NCBI RefSeq assembly: GCF_042453785.1
Contig: NC_091674.1
Location: 26,577,001-26,641,000, forward strand
Direction: 5' to 3'
Length of the DNA stretch: 64,000 nt
Source: Malus domestica
Taxonomy: Eukaryota; Streptophyta; Magnoliopsida; Rosales; Rosaceae
A program made the translations under genes and the position numbers. The notes under the pieces were generated by a model that had not been told where the DNA came from, made no database searches, and saw nothing but the letters and a program-made list of their open reading frames with translations. Positions 25,181 through 26,218 of the stretch are shown one piece after another. Each line of letters opens with the position of its first letter. Position 1 is the first letter of the stretch.

Positions 25181-26218
25181 CACTACTACAATACAAGCTA
25201 TCACCGGCAGAGCTAAATCCGACAAGAAACCCAATTTCTGTCGGAAATTTGGCACAAATCCGACATTAAACAATGTAATGTCGGATGCATAGCGTCACTA
25301 AAGGCTATCAGTGTCGCTTTGTGCACTTAATCTGACACTACACAGCGGTTTAAAGCGACACTGACTCTAATGTCGGTTTAAAGCGACGTAAACTAATAAA
25401 ATAAACTATATAATATAGAAACTAGTGTCGGTTTATAGCGACGTAAGCTAATAAAATAAATTATATAATATAGAACCGTGTGTCGGTTCAGATAACAATT
25501 AAATAAATAAAATATTCAAATACAACTTCGATAGAAACAAAACAGAAAAATCCAAATATCAAAGTAAAAATCCTCCTAATGTAAAAATATCAAAGTAATC
25601 AAAAACAAAAAATCCAAATACAACTTCCTGCACTTCGTCACCTAAATCTACCCAACCACCACCACACCAACCAACCAATTTACATAAATCCTCAATCTGA
25701 AACCCTAACAAACTAACCCCCGAACTCGTACAGAGTCCTGCCATGCCTCTTGAGTGCATAGACGACGTCCATCGCCGTCACTGTCTTCCTCCTGGCATGC
25801 TCGGTGTAAGTCACCGCATCACGGATCACATTCTCCAAGAAGATTGATCCGCTTGACGCCGCCACGGCGAGCCAGACGGCGGATGGCGAGCTTTGTGATG
25901 CCCTGGATGTTGTCCCTCAGCACCTTTCTGTGCCTCTTGGCTCCTCCCTTGCCTAGCCCCTTGCCTTCCTTTTCGCATAAGCCAAAAGAACCCATACTTT
26001 ATGTCGCTTAAAAGCGACACTGTTTTTTTTAAAGCGACGCCTGTATTTAAAAATTATTAAAATATATGTGCTTAAACTGACGTAGGAATTTTATGACGCT
26101 TAAAAACGACATTAAATCCGACGTCATGTTGAATTAGTGTCGCAAATGTCTTATGCGCCACTATATTATATTAAACCGACGTCACCTACTGACACTATAA
26201 GGCCCTTTTGTAGTAGTG
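25181..26218. mobile_element. Non-autonomous CACTA (En/Spm) DNA transposon, 1038 bp
   Basis: Ends are exactly CACTACTACAA and TTGTAGTAGTG, the CACTA signature, with the 3-bp target duplication CGC on both sides (25178-25180 and 26219-26221). The subterminal regions are full of short direct and inverted copies of tgtcggtttaaagcgac-type words, the usual transposase-binding arrays. No transposase is present. The centre (25713 to about 25976) is a captured histone H4 piece. It is nested in the leader of the Copia element, so it is younger than that insertion (about 0.6 My by LTR divergence). Confidence 0.95.
25713..25976 (-). pseudogene. Captured histone H4 gene fragment inside the CACTA element
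   Basis: The minus strand translates to histone H4: [18 protein letters not shown], then [20 protein letters not shown], and, in a second frame, [38 protein letters not shown] and EFGG followed by a stop. The first few codons with the start are missing. About 13-14 residues around SGLIYEETRGVLK are lost near 25845, with a frame change. Changes from the usual plant H4 include P32L in ITKPAI, Q93H and G99E. The codons stay GC-rich, unlike the AT-rich transposon around them, which marks recent capture. It cannot make a working H4. It may produce antisense or small RNA against H4 genes, but that is speculation. Confidence 0.92.

What the first reader, a model, noticed from the sequence alone, without database searches (positions are those of the whole stretch)
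25181..26218. Triple nest: histone H4 piece inside a CACTA transposon inside a Copia retrotransposon
The CACTA ends, the 3-bp CGC target copy, the Copia LTRs and the CAAGC target copy are all exact, so the order of events is clear: Copia inserted (about 0.6 My ago by LTR divergence), then the CACTA element carrying part of an H4 gene inserted in its leader. Gene capture by CACTA elements is known, but a core histone as cargo is unusual. It could give small RNAs matching the H4 gene family.
Basis: partly seen in the sequence, partly recalled or inferred. Interest (0 to 1): 0.8.

Follow-up and report, generated by a model that had tools for sequence, protein, structure and literature searches.

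The report
Jumping gene carrying histone H4 pieces
A small cut-and-paste transposon in an apple-like genome once copied a nearly whole histone H4 gene, spread it to several places, and one decayed copy later landed inside a Copia retrotransposon; this is a clear new example of a known kind of gene capture, with an unusual cargo.

Summary
The triple nest is real. A 1038-bp CACTA element (25181-26218, exact 3-bp CGC target copies) lies in the leader of a Copia element (LTRs 19213-19533 and 26359-26679, 5 of 321 bases different, CAAGC target copies). At 24 other places in the genome the two Copia flanks are adjacent, 17 of them overlapping by exactly 3 bases. The cargo is genuine H4: its halves match solved H4 chains at E 3e-18 and 3e-22.

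The window copy is not the capture event. It is a decayed member of a family of eight found here. Five copies carry H4 with one shared 38-nt frameshifting deletion, so one capture was followed by spread. All seven siblings keep the H4 TATA box, 5'UTR and start codon; the window copy lost them. Three siblings replaced H4 beyond its first 27-28 residues by 317 bp of a probable plastid-sigma-factor gene, in the same orientation. The nearest H4 gene is on contig C4. Two MULE-like repeat families carry pieces nearest its probable homoeolog on C12.

Changes among copies show no clear coding constraint (26 amino-acid-changing, 16 silent sites). This is a Pack-CACTA, a known kind. Small-RNA and expression effects are untested.

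The parts
19213..19533 (-). 3' LTR of the Copia element (element on minus strand); CAAGC target copy at 19208-19212
   Evidence: 321 bp, 5 differences to the other LTR, no gaps
20310..20954 (-). Copia reverse transcriptase piece (RVT_2)
   Evidence: PF07727 E 2.6e-26; the coding region is broken into several ORFs
23736..24596 (-). Copia gag
   Evidence: PF14223 E 1.8e-7
25178..25180 (.). CGC target site copy, left
   Evidence: a single copy is implied at 17 places with adjacent Copia flanks
25181..26218 (+). Non-autonomous CACTA element (Pack-CACTA), 1038 bp
   Evidence: termini and target copies; seven siblings in the genome
25181..25517 (+). CACTA left end (backbone shared by the eight copies)
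   Evidence: alignment; left-end search
25518..25712 (-). Captured H4 3' flank and 3'UTR, shortened in this copy and with filler
   Evidence: alignment to siblings and to the C4 H4 gene
25713..25844 (-). Captured H4 coding sequence, residues 61-103 and stop codon
   Evidence: PDB H4 chains, E about 3e-22
25846..25971 (-). Captured H4 coding sequence, residues about 6-47, in another frame; the 38-nt deletion lies at the junction near 25845
   Evidence: PDB H4 chains, E about 3e-18; deletion seen in 5 of 5 H4-bearing copies
25990..26218 (+). CACTA right end (94-96% identical in six siblings, 88% in the C2 sibling)
   Evidence: more distant right ends lie next to PF02992 transposases
26219..26221 (.). 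CGC target site copy, right
26359..26679 (-). 5' LTR of the Copia element; CAAGC target copy at 26680-26684

Best explanation
A non-autonomous CACTA element (Pack-CACTA) acquired a nearly whole H4 gene: about 220 bp upstream of the ATG (TATA box and 5'UTR), the coding sequence and 3' flank. The source was the lineage of the present H4 gene on contig C4, or a lost close relative of it. A 38-nt frameshifting deletion arose at capture or in the common ancestor of the H4-bearing copies (shown: shared by 5 of 5). That ancestor was spread by cut-and-paste transposition, most likely by transposase from related CACTA elements whose ends sit next to PF02992 genes (inferred). One branch replaced H4 beyond its first 27-28 residues by 317 bp of a probable plastid-sigma-factor gene, with 5 bp of shared sequence at one junction and a short filler at the other, as expected of error-prone break repair (inferred). 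Another branch lost the upstream part and start codon and jumped into the leader of an already integrated Copia element: the window copy (order shown by the places with adjacent Copia flanks). The cargo has drifted without clear coding constraint since capture. It most likely makes no histone; copies that keep the H4 promoter could make short or chimeric transcripts (not tested).
For: Perfect 3-bp target copies in 7 of 8 copies, each different. Adjacent flanks at 24 other places, 17 with exactly 3-bp overlap. Shared 38-nt deletion in 5 of 5 H4-bearing copies. Nearest gene: promoter K2P 11-15% to the C4 gene against 26-31% to the C12 gene in six copies, while C4 and C12 differ by 27.8% (the seventh, truncated copy C7a gives 27% and 52%, inflated by its deletion); the 3' part is 84.5-88.6% identical to C4, 82.3-87.4% to C12 and at most 70% to the other ten H4 genes. 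Coding differences common to all copies: 8 silent, 0 amino-acid-changing; differing among copies: 26 changing, 16 silent. Second gene piece 91-96% identical to loci on C7 and C1; an open frame downstream of it there matches cyanobacterial-type sigma factors. With all 150 listed transposase hits entered, 9 of 33 right-end and 3 of 32 left-end places lie within 10 kb of one, all 12 interior and on the opposite strand.
Against: Transposition, transcription and small RNAs were not observed. The C4 and C12 genes show no CACTA-type end (exact short pattern and end comparison) in the roughly 1.5 kb held on each side, so the capture mechanism is not seen at its source. One sibling (C11a) has changed end bases and no perfect target copy. 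The C4 margin over C12 is only 0.6-2.2 percentage points in the 3' part; the assignment rests mainly on the promoter. The neutral reading of 26 against 16 sites is by eye, without a formal test.
Confidence: 0.92

Rival explanations
1. The H4 piece is an ordinary H4 pseudogene or retrocopy that the CACTA element inserted next to, not cargo.
For: Other decayed H4 fragments exist in the genome.
Against: The same H4 sequence with the same deletion lies between the same CACTA ends at five sites (four of them with perfect, different target copies); sequence upstream of the TATA box is included in the siblings, which a retrocopy would lack.
Confidence: 0.02
2. The family still has a function through its H4 part: the H4 promoter drives short H4-tail or chimeric transcripts, or small RNAs that act on H4 genes.
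For: Seven siblings keep TATA box, 5'UTR and ATG; the three sigma-factor copies keep an open 28-codon H4 N-terminal tail followed by a stop. C-to-T-type changes are concentrated at CG sites (11 of 38 sites in the coding piece, against 10 other changes over 271 sites), as expected if the copies are methylated.
Against: Changes among copies show no clear constraint; the window copy has lost the promoter; the CHG excess in the coding piece against all other parts (13/33 vs 7/53, p 0.008; 9/32 vs 5/51, p 0.038 without the window copy; both uncorrected) is not significant against the captured non-coding parts (3/15, p 0.32 and 0.73), and CHH shows none.
Confidence: 0.1
3. The MULE-like H4 pieces and the CACTA H4 cargo come from one capture passed between transposon families.
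For: The 3' parts are 78-86% alike, and the identity differences that separate C4 from C12 as source are small. One MULE-like copy (L035) has a CACTA end at its edge.
Against: The CACTA cargo is nearest the C4 gene; the MULE-like pieces are nearest C12 (85.2-87.9% against 82.2-85.1% for C4); borders differ.
Confidence: 0.12

Closest known systems
Pack-CACTA / Pack-TYPE transposons (Arabidopsis, rice, maize; PMC8903248: passages and section 9 read; Catoni et al. 2019 not held, known here only from citations)
   Same: Short non-autonomous CACTA elements with intact ends and target copies, gene fragments inside, several copies, pieces from more than one gene.
   Different: Cargo is a core histone gene with its upstream region and 3' flank. 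The word 'histone' does not occur in the held main text of PMC8903248 or of the review PMC13317346; supplements were not seen.
Tgm-Express1 of soybean (PMC1947982: abstract and outline seen)
   Same: CACTA element carrying host gene fragments.
   Different: Five unrelated fragments in a 5.7-kb element with chimeric transcripts shown by cDNA; here one or two fragments in elements of 1.0-1.6 kb, with no expression data.
Pack-MULEs (general knowledge; search listings only)
   Same: Two further repeat families here carry H4 pieces; the first has long inverted ends and a 9-bp target copy in L032.
   Different: Different superfamily, different borders, probably the other homoeolog as source.

Membership tests
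CACTA superfamily | Terminal inverted repeat beginning CACTA | tested here: met
   Both ends CACTACTACAA, first 11 bases identical
CACTA superfamily | 3-bp target site duplication | tested here: met
   CGC here; 7 of 8 copies perfect; 17 places with exact 3-bp overlap of the flanks
CACTA superfamily | Related autonomous elements with a Transposase_21 (PF02992) gene | tested here: met
   9 of 33 right-end places and 3 of 32 more distant left-end places lie within 10 kb of one of the 150 listed PF02992 hits (150 scored of 781 candidates). No partner close to this family was identified.
CACTA superfamily | Repeated subterminal transposase-binding motifs | tested here: inconclusive
   Short GTCG-type motifs recur near both ends; no chance level computed, binding not tested
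Pack-CACTA (Pack-TYPE) | No transposase, host gene sequence inside, multicopy | tested here: met
   H4 cargo, eight copies of 1.0-1.6 kb; absence of transposase inferred from their length and alignment
Pack-CACTA (Pack-TYPE) | Observed mobilisation | not testable with these tools
   Only one genome held
Copia LTR retrotransposon | LTRs, 5-bp target copy, gag and RVT_2 | tested here: met
   the full domain order was not tested
Pack-MULE (second H4-bearing family, L032/L035/L037/L040) | Long terminal inverted repeats and 9-bp target copy | tested here: inconclusive
   Inverted ends of about 216-268 aligned bases in L032, L035 and L040; 9/9 target copy in L032 and 8/9 in L040, both AT-rich; in the other two loci one end is missing
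Pack-MULE (second H4-bearing family) | MULE transposase in relatives | not tested
   -

The most novel reading that the evidence does not exclude
One H4 gene pair (C4/C12) is a recurrent capture target: three unrelated DNA transposon families took pieces of it, and the CACTA family kept the H4 promoter, so that dispersed copies could be transcribed in dividing cells and feed chimeric transcripts, H4-tail peptides or small RNAs back on the H4 gene family.
Probability: 0.1. Interest if true: 0.7.

Novelty: new member of a known kind. Interest (0 to 1): 0.45.

Why it matters
It is a clean nest that documents capture, shared damage, spread, swapping of cargo and decay of a Pack-CACTA within one genome. 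H4 is among the most conserved proteins known (general knowledge), so amino-acid changes in the cargo show plainly that capture freed it from selection. The repeated sampling of what looks like one H4 homoeolog pair by different transposon families makes a testable question: do histone genes, or this locus, attract capture?

Tried and rejected
Retrocopy or neighbouring pseudogene: rejected, because upstream sequence and the same CACTA ends occur at independent sites.

Intact H4 in some sibling: rejected, the five H4-bearing copies share the 38-nt deletion and the other three lack most of the coding sequence.

Selection on the cargo: no clear sign (no formal test).

Non-CG methylation signature in the H4 coding piece: a cell-level count looked strong, but counted once per site only a CHG excess remained (p 0.008, or 0.038 without the window copy, uncorrected), and it was not significant against the captured non-coding parts. 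Not claimed. The coding piece is about twice as divergent among the four H4-bearing siblings as the other parts (0.069 against 0.018-0.039); its higher G+C and CG content explains much of that.

CACTA ends beside the nearest H4 genes or the sigma-factor-like loci: none found in the held flanks.

Literature: of ten searches, seven looked for histone H4 or histone genes as transposon cargo or for apple CACTA gene fragments, one for Pack-CACTA (29), one for apple transposable elements (55), one for CACTA with host gene fragments and histone (59). Two gave no paper. In the listings (titles and abstract starts; one search listed 15 of 170, 15 of 18, 8 of 10) I saw none that reports a CACTA element with histone cargo; apart from the three papers named, none was opened.

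Full report
Setting. The window is G000:C14:26577001-26641000 of a 651 Mb genome in 19 contigs. The contig sizes and the spread of H4 genes over contigs 3/11, 4/12, 6/14 and 1/7 fit an apple-like genome; that is my inference from recalled chromosome pairs, not a tool result. 'Homoeolog' for C4/C12 rests on the same recall.

The nest. The Copia element runs on the minus strand from LTR to LTR (19213-19533 and 26359-26679; 321 bp each, 5 differences, CAAGC on both outer sides). Gag and reverse transcriptase pieces lie between. The CACTA element 25181-26218 sits between the 5' LTR and gag, flanked by CGC on both sides. The Copia sequences on its two sides were searched for in the genome apart (40 candidates scored of 337 and of 382). 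Among the 40 main hits of each list, 24 other places have both flanks adjacent: 17 overlap by exactly 3 bases, 3 by 2, and 4 leave 1-3 bases between. In the window they are 1038 bases apart. So the CACTA element came second. With a recalled rate of 1.3e-8 per site per year the LTRs give about 0.6 My; the rate is not calibrated here.

The cargo. On the minus strand the two halves of H4 stand in two frames. Each finds H4 chains of the PDB. In Pfam the first half finds no family at E 0.01, and the second half finds histone-fold families, best CENP-T_C (7.5e-7) and TAF above their cut-offs, with the general Histone model below its own (4e-4). The pieces are short; the residue-by-residue match to H4 chains decides.

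The family. The own-genome search found seven siblings: C6, two on C7, two on C11, C2 and C15. They are 1313-1643 bp long. Target copies are perfect in seven of eight copies and each different (CGC, CAA, GCA, TTG, GTT, AAA, GGG); the eighth (C11a) has changed end bases and no perfect target copy. Five copies, the window one included, carry H4 and share a 38-nt deletion. The other four of these hold TATA box, 5'UTR and ATG, and would read 55 residues, H4 1-48 followed by a frameshifted tail; one of them (C7a) lacks the outer part of the promoter. The window copy has lost this whole side. In the other three (C2, C11b, C15) the H4 sequence beyond its first 27-28 residues is replaced by 317 bp that match loci on C7 (95-96%) and C1 (91-93%). 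A neighbouring open frame at those loci matches sigma factors of cyanobacterial type (best NCBIfam E 1.1e-12, far below that model's cut-off; PDB E 5e-8; Pfam Sigma70_r2 below cut-off), so the source is probably a nuclear gene for a plastid sigma factor. The captured exon itself has no credible family match. It lies in the same orientation as H4. One junction shares CTGGA with both sources, the other has a short filler. These three copies differ from each other by only 0.9-1.5% in the backbone, against 2.1-6.8% for the other pairs.

Nearest gene. Of 12 complete H4 genes the C4 gene is nearest. In the promoter six copies differ from C4 by 11-15% and from C12 by 26-31%; C4 and C12 differ by 28%. 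In the 3' part identity is 84.5-88.6% to C4, 82.3-87.4% to C12 and at most 70% to the other ten, so there the two are close. The eight coding differences common to all copies are silent, and at five of them the copies agree with C12, so the C4 gene probably changed there later. Among copies 26 sites are amino-acid-changing and 16 silent, roughly as without selection (sites where at least four of five copies have a base, commonest change per site, no formal test).

Mobiliser. 150 PF02992 hits were listed, of 781 candidates. 9 of 33 right-end places (the 33 include the window copy and its siblings) and 3 of 32 distant left-end places lie within 10 kb of one, all 12 interior and on the opposite strand (with 43 of the 150 rows gave the same). 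These are lower bounds. Right ends outside the family are 77-84% identical, so the direct partner was not identified.

Other H4-bearing repeats. Four loci (C8, C6, C7, C2; L032, L035, L037, L040) share about 1.1-1.5 kb and hold the H4 C-terminal third with its 3' side, nearest the C12 gene (85-88%, against 82-85% for C4). Three of them show inverted ends of about 216-268 bases. L032 has a 9/9 and L040 an 8/9 target copy of nine bases, AT-rich. Three loci (L052, L053, L054) form another repeat with about 100 bp of H4, also nearest C12 (83-93% against 78-86% for C4); for L053, the one with both ends seen, no good target copy was found. Both look MULE-like; their transposase was not sought. Further H4 fragments (L049, L050, L051) are nearest to other H4 genes; whether they lie in transposons was not examined.

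What it does. The best reading is a Pack-CACTA whose cargo hitch-hikes. C-to-T-type changes are common at CG sites (11 of 38 in the coding piece and 21 of 90 elsewhere, against 36 other changes over 1210 sites), as expected of methylated transposons. Expression and small RNAs are untested.

Novelty. Gene capture by CACTA elements is known (PMC8903248, passages and section 9 read; PMC1947982, abstract and outline seen; PMC13317346, passages read). The histone cargo with promoter, the shared lesion and the second swap are new details of a known kind, as far as the searches listed under Tried and rejected show.

Noticed in passing
window 26994-27073 (-): A tRNA gene (Rfam RF00005, 61.8 bits) lies about 310 bp outside the Copia 5' LTR.
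   Followed up: no
window 28029-30756 (-): ORFs read like a protein kinase gene split by introns (HRDLKSEN seen by eye; no family search).
   Followed up: no
window 16869-18290 (+): A 473-aa open frame that reads like another Copia gag with zinc knuckle and protease motif (by eye), on the opposite strand, just left of the nest.
   Followed up: no
L032, L035, L037, L040: A second, MULE-like repeat family carries the C-terminal third of H4 and its 3' side, nearest the C12 H4 gene.
   Followed up: partly
L052, L053, L054: A third repeat family, ends GGGTAAATTACA-like, carries about 100 bp of H4, nearest the C12 H4 gene.
   Followed up: partly
L035 near 875/876: A CACTA left end abuts the MULE-like element within a base or so, so a related CACTA element seems to have inserted into it.
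   Followed up: no
L062, about 340 bp 3' of the H4 gene on C4: A terminus GGGTAAATTACATAAAATTAC like that of the third repeat family lies beside the C4 H4 gene.
   Followed up: no
C6 sibling, element positions 358 and 458: A 29-bp piece of the H4 3' flank occurs twice 100 bp apart with filler between, as if the source was copied in two starts.
   Followed up: partly
window 24721-25042: Imperfect direct repeats in the Copia leader: six copies of a 20-nt core, four of a 57-nt unit.
   Followed up: no
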